Shown here: positions 40,618 to 48,797 of the stretch, in pieces
How the letters are laid out: the number at the start of each line of letters is the position of its first letter
How positions within the stretch are numbered: the stretch's first letter is position 1
NCBI GenBank assembly: GCA_000827325.1
Contig: KN832878.1
Span: 310,001-374,000 of the forward strand
DNA: 64,000 bases
Direction: 5' to 3'
DNA from: Oidiodendron maius Zn
Lineage: Eukaryota; Ascomycota; Leotiomycetes; Myxotrichaceae
Program-made: the position numbers and the translations under genes
Notes under the pieces: model-generated
Told to the model about the DNA's origin: nothing
The model's database searches: none
The model's input: only the letters and a program-made list of their open reading frames with translations

Positions 40618-42121
40618 TTATACCATCACACTTTCCATCCATGGATATACTGACGAGTTCGCCAGCGGGTATCCCATATGAAGCGCATCGTTGAAAAATC
40701 TGGCACATGTAAGTTCATTTCCATCCTGAGCTGCACAAGTCAACAGCACCTACCTCGCCTCTTTTGGAGTACCGTGCTCGAACAAGATCATCGAATCTTC
40801 AATGGGCATTAGACCATCCTCGACCCCCTGATTTCGTTTATCAGCTTGCTGATGGTAGCAAACCCCTTGCTGCATAACTCACATTGATGAGCAGAAGCCT
40901 CGTGGATGGTGTATCCATAATTCCGGTCTCCAGCAGCGAGAACTTTTTCTGTGCGGATTCCATATATTCTTCGGCTGACTTATATCCGTGTTTAGTAGAT
41001 AGCGCTGGCCAGAGGCTCATGTGCAGTCAGCTTTAAAAATATTAATTACTCATGTAGTACTCACGAGAATGGGTATTCATGTCCGTCCGCCTTCTCCAGC
41101 CAGTCACGCCCGAAGAAGAAGTGAGTCCCTGCACCCTGGGCCACGCTGCCCCTCAGTCTCTCCTTATGTGTGTGGGCAATCCTCACAGCATAATATCCGC
41201 CACAGCTCAAACCCCATACAATGACGCGGGTCATATCAAAGGTTCCTTGTAATTCCATCCAGTCCAATATACTAGTCCAGAGACGGTCAGCACTCAACGG
41301 ATCGCTGGGATCAGCTGGACAGTCAGCTGTTCCAGGAACCTCTACTATAACAGAAGCCCATCCACGGGCCAGAAACTCGTCACTTCGTACAGTATTATCT
41401 GGCCTGTATCCATCAAGTCCGGTGATCAACAGCACAGCAGGGACTTTGGAACCAGGCTTTGCCGTCTTCGCAGGAAGACGCATATAGATGGGAATAGTAT
41501 CCCGATCAAGCCCTTTACGAGCGGTATGCGGAACCATGATTTCCTTTATAGGGGCATCCCAGTTACTAGCAGCCTTCATATAAACATTCTTTTGCGCCTC
41601 CCAGGCTTTCCATTTAGACTCTGAGCTCGCCTCTGGAAAGCCAGTGATGTATGGGAAACGCGAGATGCGGTAGATGCATGCCGCTCGAAGATATAATTCG
41701 GAGGCCAGGACCAGTTTTCCAGCAGCTGCGGCTTCGTCGCCTTGGCGAGTAAGAGACTCTCCAATTGGGAAGAATGCTTCAGTGTATGCGTCACCATATC
41801 CGTCATTGATATCGTGCTTTAAAGGGTTAAAATTTCTTCTTCTCCAACCAGACATGATAAATCACCTTGATCAGCTGTTCAAATATTGGCTCGAAATCCT
41901 CATATTTTCCATCATGGAAAGGATATAGACTTTTTCCACACTGCGATACATTGTCAGTGCTTTTCCATCCAGGCATAAGCGGAACGGCCGAGCCAGAGAA
42001 ATCATACTGGAAATTTCCACTTCGTTTCCCACAATTCCTTGATTCCATCGTGATGAGGCATCTTCTCGTCAAATTTCTTTCCAAGGATCCATTGCTTAGT
42101 ATTTGCAACCTTAGAGGCCAT
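40618..42121 (-). CDS. Ayg1-like alpha/beta hydrolase (polyketide-shortening type)
   Basis: Six exons: 42121-42008, 41940-41866, 41816-41065, 41015-40883, 40827-40754, 40699-40618; introns 49-67 nt; 1230 nt, 409 residues, against 406 in Aspergillus fumigatus Ayg1. Conserved stretches in order: [83 protein letters not shown], the nucleophile elbow [11 protein letters not shown] (Ser about 267), [26 protein letters not shown] (Asp) and ALHMGYP (His). Ayg1 cleaves a C-C bond of a heptaketide naphthopyrone to give 1,3,6,8-tetrahydroxynaphthalene for DHN melanin. No PKS or other melanin gene lies nearby, so the substrate here is open; many Ayg1 homologues serve other pathways. Confidence 0.88.
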
Positions 42122-45100
42122 TTTGTGTATTCAATAATCCTTCCAGATTGTGACTAGGATGCTCAATTCTCAAGGGTTTCTTGGCGCGCACAAGTTATAG
42201 GGTAGACTTGGCTGTAGCTGAAAATTAATTCAATGGTCAAAGAGCCGTGAAGCTCTGGATTGGCAAATGTAAACCATTAATATGGGAATGTTCTCTCTCG
42301 GCCGGGCTTTCCTCTGTGTCGCAGCGGCATGCACGTCGGATGTCCGAGAGATGACGGACATCAGCACGAATGATATTGCATATGCGCGAAATGTAATTCA
42401 CCATGTAGTATTTCACTCTAGAAGCCACAGTAGAGTGTTCACCTCAATCGGAAGATTATCACAGCATCGGGCTGGGTAGAACTGGTCCCATGACGTCACA
42501 TTCCAAGCTCTGATCCAGACACGTACAGGCATATTGCATACAGATCAGCATAGCTGTAAAGGATGACAGCGCTGTAGCATAAGTACTCTTACAGTATTAA
42601 GCATTAATTCAGGGATCGGGCAACTTTTGCTCTGCTATGGCAGATATATACAACAGCTGTACGATCCGCCATAATCTATGGTGCTACCGTCTAGAGCAAC
42701 CTTCTAAGGGCTGATCACAAAAGATCTCTATTACTTTCAGTATCGTCTTTTCTCGGGCCATTGAAAACATTTGAAAGTGAATAGGCGAAGGTGAAGAAGG
42801 GCTACAAATATAGAGAAGCCGTCCTTGTAGAAATTTTCAAAACACTATACCCTGAGGCCCTTTCTCACGCCTCTAATGACCTTTTGTACTCTCAATCCCT
42901 GAATTACTTTCCAATTCAACTAATACTATAGACATTATCAAACAATTCAAGGGCCTCGATAAGGCAGATCGCAATGATTTCAAGTCAACTATTAAACAGA
43001 TATCAACCTACATAAGAGATGTAGAGAATAGGAAGAGGAAGGGTAGGGAATCTGCCGACTCTAAAGCTAAGATGAATGAAGCGGTACAAAACCTTTATGA
43101 GATTGTCGATAACTTTTTCTATTGACTATACCCGAGTACACCCAATTCCCTCAGGAAAGTTTGGATCGATAACAAAGCTCGGAGCTTGATTAGAGAGATC
43201 TACACGTTGGTCCAGGGCCTTGATATAAAGAGTCCACCGTACTCAGAAGATCTAAAAATATACTGAAATCGAAAGGAGAGGGGCTACTGGCTCATTATCA
43301 GACAATCTTACCAGATTCAAACGCCTATAAGTATAGCATTTGGATTCCTGAGCCTGAAGAAGGTTGAGGATATTAAGCAACCCTACTACTATAGCACAAC
43401 TAACAATTCAAGCCAAGAGCATTGATAAAGATATAGCCTGTATAAGCCTTCCTCCAGACATGAACGACCTTGATGCACTCGCAAAGGCAAATGCTACAGA
43501 CACCCAGAAAATAAAGGCCCAGCAGTAAAGCACTAAAGAGGAAGTGCTAGAGATTTTGCTTGAAATATATGACTTGAAACTAGTACCTGTATAAGTACAC
43601 GATAGCCTCGACATTAGAGAAGAGGGTACCTTGGACGCTATTAAGACCGAAAAATGGCTCGGTATTGCAGGCGAAAACAAGGGCGTGTAGACTGGGTTTT
43701 GACGCGAATGTGGGCGGCATCGGAGAAGGTTCTCATCAAGAGTCGAAGCCATCGGGTATGTAAGGCCTCACTCAAACATTACTGGATACCCCTAGAGGTT
43801 ACGACCTATATCCCCCCCGTTAATGCATACCTAAATGGTAGAATTGTAGTCTTCCAAGAGCGGGTAGAAAATTCTAGCTTATATGATATGATCAAGAAGG
43901 CACTTAGTAATTAGAGCTAGGTTGAAATCTAGAGTAGCTAAGAGGGTAAAGATAGAGGGGTAGCTCTATATACTAAGGGTATCGTATAGAAGAGAAACAG
44001 ATACTACGGGAATGGACATAGAAACGTGGCTGGAAGCATGACAGAGAGAACCAAGGGTAGCTAAGTAGGGATAGTAGGAGAGAGATTCACTAGGATCTTA
44101 TTCGATAACCTCTGAGTGATACGATTCTAAAACTATACTAGAATCTATAGAAGGCGGCAACCTTTACTTTAGTCTAGTTCTGTATAAGTCGAAGAGGACT
44201 AGTTAGCTTTCTATACTACTTGGTAGATTAGGGTACTAGATTTCTAGTCCCATGTTTACTAATATAGATAGGAGGCGAGCCCGTAATATGTACTACGCCA
44301 CTACCCTCTAGAAGAGAGTAGGAGCTAGATCCTCTGTGCGATATATAGATGAGGGATCGATATCGTAATATTACTCGATACTCGAGAAGAGCAAGAACAG
44401 TTGCACGTTAGACTGTATAATCAGGCTCCATGACTCTGTTCCAGGTGGCTAGGAATTTATTGTACGCATAACTCTAGTTAAAAATCAGTGACTATTTGTA
44501 GACAGTGAGGGTTTATAGAGTTAGTTGATAGATAGATCCGAGCTTTTAACCCTATTTAATAATTTCCTTAGGGGTAGGATAGATAGCAGCATTACATAAC
44601 GGTATTTTAGCTAGTTAGAGCAAAAATTTATCAGTCAATCAAGCCAAGCCTAATCCATTCAGTTCAAATGTCGCAGTTTTAATAGTAATACGCAGCGACG
44701 CGCAAAATATTGATCGAGTTGATAAAATATGTTTTCAGCACAGCAGACATCAAAATATTAACAGTGGCATGTAAAACAGAATTCATCAGAGGCGCATCTT
44801 CTCAATTATGATACTTGTCTTCTTCCGCTACTTGCTATTTGGACTGTAACAGGCAGATAAAGGAAGGGATTGGTAGGTCGACGCTCGTAATGGCATCTGA
44901 GAGTCGGAAGACGTGAAATCTGGGCAAGGCTGCCAGATAAGCGAACGGAAATTCATTTTGAAAGGACTAAAAGGGGTTCAAAATAAGCGATGGTAGCGTG
45001 GTATAGAGCTACATATATCAGCTACGGTAGGGGTCTTTCGGCCATATCTTATTCCCGAAGATTATCAAACTTAAAATGGGATGACTTTCTGGCTGGCCAC

Positions 45101-45970: not shown

Positions 45971-47597
45971 ATGAGAAACACATCATCCAACATGGGATCT
46001 CAGGTCTCTGTTTGGCTATCTGAGCTATCGAGCAATTCGTCGGAATCAACTGATGAAAACTCAGACACTTTTACGGATGATAGCTATGAGTCTAAAGGTG
46101 TTTCCATTACCTCCAAGGAGCGACACGATTCTCAACATGGAGAAAAGACGAGGACGGGTTCATCTCCGCACACTAGTAGCAAGAAACGGCGATACGACCC
46201 AGAAGATAGTGAAAGCGAAGACAGTAAAAACAAAGATGAGACAATATTTAACAAAAGGCCGCGATATGCTTCAGACAAAAGTGAAAATAAATCAGAATCT
46301 CAATCTGATGGCAGTACTTCTAGCAATAAAACAGAATACGATTCAGATGAGAATAATCAGACAAATAAAAGCGGCGATAGAAAAGATTGCCGCTCGAGCT
46401 CTCTAAACTCAGACGACGAGGGTAAGTGATAAATTGCAAAATTATTTAGATCATCCAGCTAATGAATCCACGACATTGGCTTAGAGAACGATAAAGCATC
46501 ACCAAGCAAAGAAGAGACGCAAAAAGACTTGAAGGACTGCGCAACAGAATCGTCGCGTAAATTGGGTGTGAGTAAATCTATAAGATGGCTCTGCTGTCAA
46601 GATATCTTCTGGCAACTCGTCTGACCAGATGCAGCCAAATTATGAAATTCCGACTACACTCAAGCGACACGAGCGATACACCACGCTTTGCAAAGAGCTC
46701 TCCGTCATCTTGAAGAAGTCGACGGAGTCTCTATTATCACCAGAGGGGCTAGCAGATGGCTTAGAGTTGATTGAAACACTTAAGATTAAGTATCAATGCT
46801 TGCTCTATCCTGGGAACTCCAAGAAATTGGACAGAGATATCCCCTATCCCATGACTATTGAAGAAGTTCAAGAGCGAATTCAGGGGTCGGAAGAAGATAA
46901 GCATTCTTGGCTTGCGTCTGCGCAGGGGAATATACCAGAGAGTGGCATCCTGTATCGCACCTGGGATAAGTCAAGCCAATGCCAGATCCTCAAAGTTGAT
47001 CTTGGGTTCCTATCAGGAGGTGCATGCTCAGATTTTAGGAGTAGAGAAGGTCGAAAGAACCATCTGCAGTGCCACGCCAACTGGGGAAACAGAAGGAAAA
47101 CTCCGTTTATATCTACCACGCCGTCTATTAAAGTTATCGCTAGGTATATAAAGCAATTTGAGAGACGCCAGAAGGCACAGGTCAACACGATTATGCTCAC
47201 GGCCATTAACGCCAAAGCTCGTCAGGCAGCAGGCTGGCCAGTTCTCAACATGTTAAACGAGCTCATACATTATGGGGCCAAGATTCCAGCTAAGTGTGGC
47301 CTTGCAACTTACGTGGGCGAGTATCTCCTGCCGTTCCGCATACGTCCAGAGGAGAATATCTGGACATGGTACCATACAGATACTCTAGAGTGGCTCAAAG
47401 ACCATAAAACAGATGATATGGAAGTGTGGGAGGCAAAGGTGGTCCGGCCGGTGTATGAAGAGCATGAAAGATCGAGAAAGGCCGGGGCCAGCGACGAGGA
47501 GACGAAAAAAGATGTGGAGGCACTGTTACTGAAACTGATGCCCTCCGCCGTTGAGAGCCACCGGAGGGCTACAGCGCAGGGATGTCTCTTTCGATAG
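45971..47597 (+). CDS. Repetitive charged protein with DUF7587/ART-like C-terminal domain
   Basis: Exons 45971-46421, 46485-46567, 46629-47597; 1503 nt, 500 residues. Residues 1-180 are Ser/Asp/Lys-rich and hydrophilic, with a degenerate three-fold repeat of a basic cluster followed by an acidic Ser run (KKRRYDPEDSESEDS, KRPRYASDKSENKSE, NKTEYDSDENNQ), giving likely nuclear localisation signals. The C-terminal 320 residues look globular. LYRTWD, HANWGNRRKTPFISTTPS and YVGEYLLPFRIRPEENIW come in the order Arg / Ser-Thr-Thr / Glu, the pattern of R-S-E ADP-ribosyltransferase folds and of the fungal DUF7587 family as I know it. No activity is shown. The gene sits in the AT-rich island and its coding DNA has lower GC than neighbours. 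Coding-like composition continues past the stop to about 47753, so the 3' end is uncertain. Other in-frame starts: 45995. Confidence 0.6.
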
Positions 47598-48797
47598 CGG
47601 ATAACGGATGGGAAGGCCAAGGTGAAGTGGCATAGCGAACAGTTCGACGCCGCAGCCGCAGCCATCCTGGCGTTACGCATAGACGACAGCGTCAGCCTCG
47701 CCCCCCAGGAACTGTGCGGTGCGGCAGTGATGAAGGGGCAGAAGTGCACTTAGATGGGATGTAAATGCGTAGGAATCAATCAATTTAAGGCGCTGGTTTT
47801 ATTTTTATTCCTTTACGAATGCAACAACATGTGCCCGAGGGGCACATGTGAAGGGGAAACGGGGATAATAGGGACTCACACACTTGCGGCCATTAATCTA
47901 GGCCTGACCACTTACCCCTCTAAGAATATTGACTACATTTCGTATACCTACGCCACAGTACTCTCTTCTTCGTGATCGCATGTACCTCTAATGCTTTGTA
48001 CCATCAAATCTCCACTAACGGTCCTTTTTCAACCCCACCGGCAACCATCACAACATTCGAGCCCGCTTACCTGGGGCCAGCCTCAGGAACCCCGTTATCT
48101 CATCAATTCAGGGTTGGTTCGGCTTCAAAACGCCCTCCAGGATATGTATATTTCGGGAACCAAGTGGGAGAGGGCTTATATTTACGTAGCCTATCATCAG
48201 TATATCAATCGGATTGTACAGTAGACTTAAAAACTCCTACTGCATCACTTACAGAAGGGTCTATGATCTGAGAGCTTGAGCCAAGGGATACAATTGAGGT
48301 AGATATTAACCATTCGCTAGAAGCTCGATTCCACCAACCCTCTGAGTCTTGCTTTGAAGTGAATCAGAGTAGAATGCATTTGTTTAATTGCTATTGTCCG
48401 CAAGGAGGGAATAGCTGTCACTTGAAGCCTTAGTTGCGCCATGAATGCCATAGCAAACAGAGCTAATCCGCACTCGGGGCCGTGACTATAACAACTCAAA
48501 GAATGCCAGCACGAAACTGAGCAACTGACTGTCTGTCAACATAAATACCCAACAGACGATGCTCCCATCCTGATTGGAGTTCGCGTGCTTCATTCTACTC
48601 AAGGAGGCGAAGGCGATGTCAGCCATATATTATTCGCCAGCCCCGAAATAGCTAGGTCAAGTTATTCCAGCCACGTCCAGCATCCCCGCTCTGGATGCTC
48701 AGGGGTGGCTCGAGCTGACAGGAGTAGTAAGTATTAAGGTTTACCAGATCACCGCAGTATCTCTCAACATCCACACATTCCAAGAGAAAGAATCAGG
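47598..48797. other. Intergenic, F-box gene upstream region
   Basis: About 1.2 kb. Contains a protein-like but unassigned piece at 48080-48224 and a hairpin at 48667-48712. No complete gene supported. Confidence 0.5.
48667..48712. repeat. Hairpin-forming inverted repeat
   Basis: Arms AGCCACGTCCAGCATCC and GGATGCTCAGGGGTGGCT pair over 6-7 bp at each end with a small internal loop; apical loop CCGCTCT. It lies 86 nt before the F-box gene start, so it is in its promoter or leader. Confidence 0.6.

What the first reader, a model, noticed from the sequence alone, without database searches (positions are those of the whole stretch)
45971..47597. Charged repeat plus ART-like domain gene in an AT-rich island
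A 500-residue protein joins a three-fold basic/acidic nuclear-type repeat to a domain whose conserved-looking blocks come in Arg / Ser-Thr-Thr / Glu order (LYRTWD near 46950, FISTTPS near 47105, GEYLLPFRI near 47318). This is the layout of R-S-E ADP-ribosyltransferases and of DUF7587. The gene sits between a decayed element and normal genes and has lower GC, so it may be a fast-evolving or transferred accessory gene. A DNA- or histone-directed modifier is one speculative possibility.
Basis: partly seen in the sequence, partly recalled or inferred. Interest (0 to 1): 0.7.

Follow-up and report, generated by a model that had tools for sequence, protein, structure and literature searches.

The report
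Fungal DUF7587 gene, fold unproven
This is an intact-looking gene, probably fungal, of a known protein family of unknown function (DUF7587) lying beside old repeat remnants; it may carry an enzyme domain that attaches ADP-ribose to other molecules, but that could not be shown here.

Summary
The gene model holds up. Three predicted exons (45971-46421, 46485-46567, 46629-47597, +) give 500 residues. The domain matches Pfam DUF7587 above its curated cut-off (exon-3 frame 37.1 bits, E 4.4e-9; spliced protein 36.3 bits). Three parts of the reading are weaker. (1) The DUF7587 match ends at profile position 98-108 of 146, so the Glu block GEYLLPFRI lies outside it. (2) The three-fold charged repeat does not stand out from its composition (p 0.08). 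(3) The bare order R / S[ST][ST] / E occurs in 21 of 43 other long frames of the window. The ART fold could not be tested: both AlphaFold runs failed (mean pLDDT 38.1 and 31.8), and sequence searches of solved structures gave one insignificant non-ART hit each. The genome has one other DUF7587 place above cut-off, very divergent; dispersed repeats flank the gene. Verdict: new member of a family without known function; ART-like fold possible (about 0.45), nuclear ART activity speculative.

The parts
45971..46421 (+). Exon 1: start ATG, Ser/acidic/Lys-rich N-terminal region, probably disordered, with basic clusters KKRRY and KRPRY
   Evidence: Frame and GTAAGT donor; composition and repeat test; no Pfam match at E up to 10
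46422..46484 (+). Intron 1, 63 nt (predicted)
   Evidence: GTAAGT...CTTAG, keeps frame; not confirmed by RNA
46485..46567 (+). Exon 2, rest of the charged region
   Evidence: in-frame codon score 0.09 against 0.013 and 0.008 in the other forward frames
46568..46628 (+). Intron 2, 61 nt (predicted)
   Evidence: GTGAGT...ACCAG, keeps frame; not confirmed by RNA
46629..47597 (+). Exon 3: linker, DUF7587 domain and charged C-terminal tail, stop TAG
   Evidence: Open frame; DUF7587 37.1 bits on the exon-3 frame
46941..47261 (+). DUF7587 (PF24494) match, profile positions 3-108 of 146
   Evidence: 39.2 bits, E 2.2e-8 in the genome-wide search (window coordinates converted from G000:C9:356941-357261); curated cut-off 27 bits
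46950..46967 (+). LYRTWD block, candidate R of an R-S-E triad
   Evidence: LYR also present in the second DUF7587 frame of this genome
47106..47126 (+). FISTTPS block, candidate S
   Evidence: second frame reads FISVFSR
47316..47342 (+). GEYLLPFRI block, candidate E; outside the DUF7587 match
   Evidence: second frame reads SEFLIWRYI; local alignment of this half p 0.077

Best explanation
An intact-looking three-exon gene, probably fungal, encodes a 500-residue protein: a probably disordered Ser/acidic/basic N-terminal region with basic clusters that could serve as nuclear signals, then a DUF7587 domain and a charged tail. Shown: open frame, splice sites that fit, DUF7587 profile score over the curated cut-off (first two thirds of the profile), and no near paralogue in the genome. 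Inferred: DUF7587 has an ADP-ribosyltransferase-like fold, with LYR on strand 1, FISTT on strand 2 and GEYLL on strand 5; the protein binds NAD and transfers ADP-ribose inside the cell, perhaps in the nucleus. My probabilities: DUF7587 member 0.97; ART-like fold 0.45; active transferase 0.25; nuclear 0.5. The overall confidence given is for the reading up to and including the ART-like fold, not for activity.
For: DUF7587 above the curated cut-off. In-frame codon preference for exons 1 and 3 (0.135 and 0.041, against -0.071 to -0.007 in the other forward frames; 14 neighbouring frames, which also trained the score, span 0.028-0.146). The second DUF7587 frame of the genome (31.1 bits, profile 2-143) has LYR, FISVFS and SEFL in the same order. 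An R, S/T, E triad on strands 1, 2 and 5 marks the R-S-E clade (PMC7955679, passages). A pattern written after seeing the motifs matched 1 of 5000 shuffles and 0 of 43 control frames.
Against: The Glu block is outside the DUF7587 match, and its similarity to the second frame is not significant (p 0.077). The loose triad order is found in 900 of 5000 shuffles and 21 of 43 frames; the second frame does not fit the strict pattern. No ART family in Pfam or NCBIfam; single insignificant non-ART hits among solved structures. No [QE]x before the Glu: YVG precedes it here, LAS in the second frame. Both AlphaFold models failed. Within exon 3 the gene's frame scores best in 6 of 9 windows of 120 nt from 47000 to 47480; it does not at 47000 and 47060, inside the domain, nor at 47480. 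The best outside hit of the exon-3 protein among phages is a terminase nuclease domain, E 9e-3, covering LYR to FIS but without STT; I take it for chance, but it does not point to ART.
Confidence: 0.4

Rival explanations
1. DUF7587 is an ART-like scaffold that has lost catalysis, or a binding domain; the protein works as an adaptor through its charged N-terminal region.
For: Only one Glu in the block and no [QE]x[QED]-like motif; the second frame has SVF in place of STT. Eukaryotic ART-like domains that lack the canonical triad are described (PMC7955679, passages).
Against: The window copy keeps an R, an STT and an E in order.
Confidence: 0.25
2. DUF7587 has a fold unrelated to ART, and the R/S/E likeness is chance.
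For: The loose order is common by chance; no sequence search ties it to ART; the best phage hit is a terminase nuclease domain (E 9e-3).
Against: LYR and FIS blocks are shared with a second, very divergent DUF7587 frame of the genome, so these blocks are probably conserved in the family.
Confidence: 0.3
3. The gene is decaying, or its 3' end differs from the model (compatible with any fold): 52 codons, the last a stop, with gene-like codon preference follow the stop in frame.
For: 47598-47753 scores 0.085 with GC3 0.77; 1.0% of noncoding samples reach that. The stretch lies near repeat remnants. The gene's frame scores poorly in part of exon 3.
Against: All three exons are open with fitting splice sites; chance or an older exon could explain the stretch.
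Confidence: 0.2
4. Horizontally acquired accessory gene (compatible with any fold).
For: Repeat-bearing, AT-rich flank; a single copy without near paralogue.
Against: Codon preference fits the neighbours; no DUF7587 match above cut-off in 395 genomes of one bacterial phylum or in 14 control genomes; no match in plasmids.
Confidence: 0.1

Closest known systems
Pfam PF24494 DUF7587
   Same: Profile score above the curated cut-off; LYR at the start, FIS block inside the match
   Different: Last third of the profile not matched; long Ser/acidic N-terminal extension matched by no Pfam model
R-S-E clade of ADP-ribosyltransferases (Pfam ART clan)
   Same: R, STT and E in the right order
   Different: No sequence-profile match to any ART family, no usable structure, no [QE]x before the Glu. 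DUF7587 is not among the 14 clan families with eukaryotic members that the 2021 paper names (PMC7955679, passages), but I believe the DUF7587 model is newer than that paper
Second DUF7587 frame of the same genome (G000:C1:4831465-4831896, L003)
   Same: DUF7587 31.1 bits; LYR, FIS and E-F-L blocks
   Different: BLASTP of the exon-3 protein against it: E 1.7; an ATG nine residues into the frame printed leaves no room there for a Ser-rich N-terminal region in that frame

Membership tests
DUF7587 (PF24494) | Profile score above the curated cut-off of 27 bits (Pfam's own criterion) | tested here: met
   37.1 bits on the exon-3 frame, 36.3 on the spliced protein, 39.2 genome-wide, 39.7 on the domain piece
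DUF7587 (PF24494) | Match over the whole profile (not required by the cut-off) | tested here: not met
   Match ends at profile position 98-108 of 146; the C-terminal 78-aa piece alone has no match
R-S-E ADP-ribosyltransferase | ART fold: split sheet 4-5-2 / 1-3-6 | tested here: inconclusive
   AlphaFold pLDDT 38.1 and 31.8; no fold search was made because the models are unusable
R-S-E ADP-ribosyltransferase | Arg, Ser/Thr and Glu on strands 1, 2 and 5 | tested here: inconclusive
   Residues present in order; strands unknown; order common by chance
R-S-E ADP-ribosyltransferase | Sequence-profile match to a known ART family | tested here: not met
   Only DUF7587 and sub-threshold unrelated families in Pfam; none in NCBIfam
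R-S-E ADP-ribosyltransferase | NAD binding and ADP-ribose transfer | not testable with these tools
   Needs an assay
Nuclear protein | Localisation to the nucleus | not testable with these tools
   Basic clusters KKRRY and KRPRY seen in the sequence; no localisation predictor on hand

The most novel reading that the evidence does not exclude
DUF7587 is an unrecognised R-S-E ADP-ribosyltransferase family of fungi, and this member, guided by its charged N-terminal region, modifies DNA, RNA or chromatin proteins in the nucleus independently of PARP.
Probability: 0.1. Interest if true: 0.6.

Novelty: new member of a known kind. Interest (0 to 1): 0.25.

Why it matters
No paper in the library searched mentions 'DUF7587' or any of 'PF24494', 'IPR056009' and 'DUF7587 domain' (the IPR number was recalled and is unverified). 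If DUF7587 members are ADP-ribosyltransferases, fungi would have a further NAD-using enzyme family, and the R/S/E residues named here would make it testable. If not, this is one more gene of unknown function.

Tried and rejected
Fold prediction: exon-3 protein alone (collected, pLDDT 38.1) and the 159-aa domain aligned with the second frame (collected, pLDDT 31.8). Both unusable, so no fold search was made. Alignments A1 and A2 are visibly wrong around the FIS block; splitting the second frame into two pieces did not help.

Relatives for a deeper alignment: viral contigs with the exon-3 protein (7 pattern matches, no relative), with the second frame (none) and with A2 (1 of 15, a 37-residue hit opposite a 767-aa frame; taken as chance). 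Bacterial genome contigs with A2 (0 of 62). Plasmids by DNA and by protein: none. Phages with the exon-3 protein: two records of one Lactobacillus phage, E 9e-3, 81 query residues covering LYR to FIS. The pair alone aligns at 32% identity with E 7e-10 for that single, preselected comparison, but the phage stretch is a terminase nuclease domain by Pfam, not DUF7587, and has no STT; taken as chance. Phages with the second frame: one hit, E 0.2. DUF7587 in 4 bacterial genomes: 0 above cut-off; in 395 genomes of one phylum: 0 above cut-off, 7 at E up to 0.01. The best of these lies in a 386-aa frame that looks like a phage-type integrase (by eye); the other six were not examined. One search, meant for a second phylum, returned the same matches and handles, so it adds nothing; one of the two centre records bears a title (Limnohabitans) that does not fit this.

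Chromodomain idea: a frame just after the second DUF7587 frame (L003:2087-2278) looks chromodomain-like by eye and could be joined to it by a 40-nt intron (read; not tested). Pfam found nothing. Solved structures gave three cpSRP43 chromodomain entries at E 0.28-1 among 6 hits, below a restriction-enzyme hit. It was not among the 44 chromodomain matches of the genome. A profile of 8 chromodomains of this genome scored it 0.9 bits; 352 of 1866 scored shuffles did as well, while in 8 of 8 leave-one-out controls no shuffle reached the control (2 of the 10 chromodomain rows read, with stops, were dropped). Rejected. One search was a first version of that test with two rows read on the wrong strand and is void.

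Family PF01129 (ART) in the own genome: no match, but no control rang either, so uninformative. PHROGs and PADLOC: none. Rfam on the window at gathering thresholds: none. Inverted repeats around the gene: one 14-nt pair, not pursued.

Full report
What is there. The window lies in a 45.9-Mb, 58-contig assembly. I take it for a filamentous fungus from its gene content and short introns (inference); the species was not identified. Between an esterase gene on the minus strand (FrsA-like, frame 41061-41861) and a long open frame starting near 49.2 kb (F-box-like by eye; no Pfam match) lies a stretch of about 7 kb in which this is the only gene I could identify (frames of 70 aa or more listed for 41.8-45.96 kb, and of 50 aa or more for 45.5-48.2 kb; most were not scanned). 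Of 7 stop-free GT-AG combinations found in the ranges searched, I report the one with the first acceptor after each of the donors GTAAGT and GTGAGT, 500 aa. In-frame codon scores of exons 1, 2 and 3 are 0.135, 0.09 and 0.041, against -0.071 to +0.013 for the other two forward frames, and 0.028-0.146 for the 14 neighbouring frames that trained the score. The support is uneven: in 120-nt windows starting from 47000 to 47480 the gene's frame is best in 6 of 9, but not at 47000, 47060 and 47480.

Domain. The exon-3 frame matches Pfam DUF7587 with 37.1 bits, E 4.4e-9, the spliced protein with 36.3 bits, and the 159-aa domain piece with 39.7 bits over profile 3-108 of 146. The last 78 aa of that piece, which hold the Glu block, match nothing. 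So the Arg and Ser-Thr-Thr blocks belong to the family match and the Glu block does not.

The genome. One other place scores above the DUF7587 cut-off (C1:4831465, 28.9 bits) and one below it (C11:466229, 18.7 bits, with a stop inside) (introns could hide others). The second frame has LYR, FISVFSR and SEFLIWRYIPEEAI. The two are hardly alike: BLASTP E 1.7. In a local-alignment test the whole-domain score is reached by 0.5% of 1000 shuffles, the STT-to-Glu half by 1.4%, the R half by 9.4% and the Glu half by 7.7%; the best paths do not align the two FIS blocks, so they are not to be trusted in detail. The gene has no near relative in the genome.

The ART claim. ART clan members share a split sheet, and the R-S-E clade has Arg, Ser/Thr and Glu in the active site (PMC7955679, passages seen; the whole paper was not read). 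Here the order R, STT, E is real, but the bare order is common: 900 of 5000 shuffles of the exon-3 protein and 21 of 43 other frames of 170 aa or more in the window. A stricter pattern matches 1 of 5000 shuffles and 0 of 43 frames, but it was written after the motifs were seen, and the second frame does not match it. An intermediate pattern matches both frames, 144 of 5000 shuffles and 1 of 43 frames. No ART family was matched, and the sequence searches of solved structures gave one hit each, at E 0.61, 1.8 and 0.83, none of them an ART by name. AlphaFold gave pLDDT 38.1 without relatives and 31.8 with one. The fold is therefore open. My 0.45 for an ART-like fold rests on the motif shapes and on recalled likeness to ART sequences, not on a test.

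A result that points elsewhere. Among phages the exon-3 protein hits two records of one Lactobacillus phage at E 9e-3 over 81 query residues. The phage stretch is a terminase nuclease domain by Pfam (29.3 bits, cut-off 24). The pair alone gives E 7e-10, which overstates it because the pair was picked from a 2.3-billion-base search. The conserved letters include a YR and the WG before the FIS block, but not STT. I read it as chance or composition.

N-terminal region. The first 178 residues are 23% Ser, 22% Asp+Glu and 16% Lys+Arg. A 24-residue offset is the best self-match but is reached by 8% of shuffles. Tandem Repeats Finder saw only 2.3 copies of a 15-nt unit at 46203-46236. Disorder and nuclear signals are inferences from composition. 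The start shows no signal-peptide-like hydrophobic stretch (by eye).

Surroundings. Downstream, parts of 47911-48319 match 48 other pieces of the genome; at C20:843322-843797 such pieces form an element of about 475 bp with inverted ends, so this is probably a decayed MITE-like copy. Upstream, parts of 43803-44650 match 14 other pieces at 66-74% identity. Pieces are not copies, since one copy can give several, and the tool calls its counts lower bounds. The stop is followed in frame by 51 sense codons and a further stop, with gene-like codon preference reached by 1.0% of noncoding samples (length); I leave this unexplained.

Distribution. No DUF7587 match above cut-off in 395 genomes of one bacterial phylum, in 4 bacterial genomes or in 14 control genomes. 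No collection of fungal genomes was on hand, so conservation, horizontal transfer and evolutionary rate could not be tested.

Literature. Four searches were made. Two returned nothing. From the other two only listings were seen, except for PMC7955679 (passages).

Conclusion. The ART and nuclear-modifier readings remain hypotheses. Ordinary in kind, moderately interesting as a member of a family of unknown function.

Noticed in passing
window 47911-48319: MITE-like dispersed repeat with 48 other matching pieces in the genome; at C20:843322-843797 the pieces form an element of about 475 bp with inverted ends.
   Followed up: partly
window 43803-44650: Another decayed dispersed repeat, 14 other matching pieces at 66-74% identity; no element type identified.
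   Followed up: partly
window 47598-47753: 51 in-frame sense codons and a stop after the gene's stop, GC3 0.77, gene-like codon preference.
   Followed up: partly
L003:1471-2320 (G000:C1): The second DUF7587 frame may continue by a 40-nt intron into a charged linker and a segment that looks chromodomain-like by eye; the chromodomain reading failed its test.
   Followed up: yes
own genome, e.g. C11, C15, C3: Many chromodomain matches carry a similar set of stops (often 2-3 TAG and 1-2 TAA), as one would expect of a decayed repeat family.
   Followed up: no
L137 701-973 (Lactobacillus phage Lv-1): Terminase nuclease stretch with weak likeness (E 9e-3 in the phage search) to the LYR-to-FIS part of the window protein.
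   Followed up: partly
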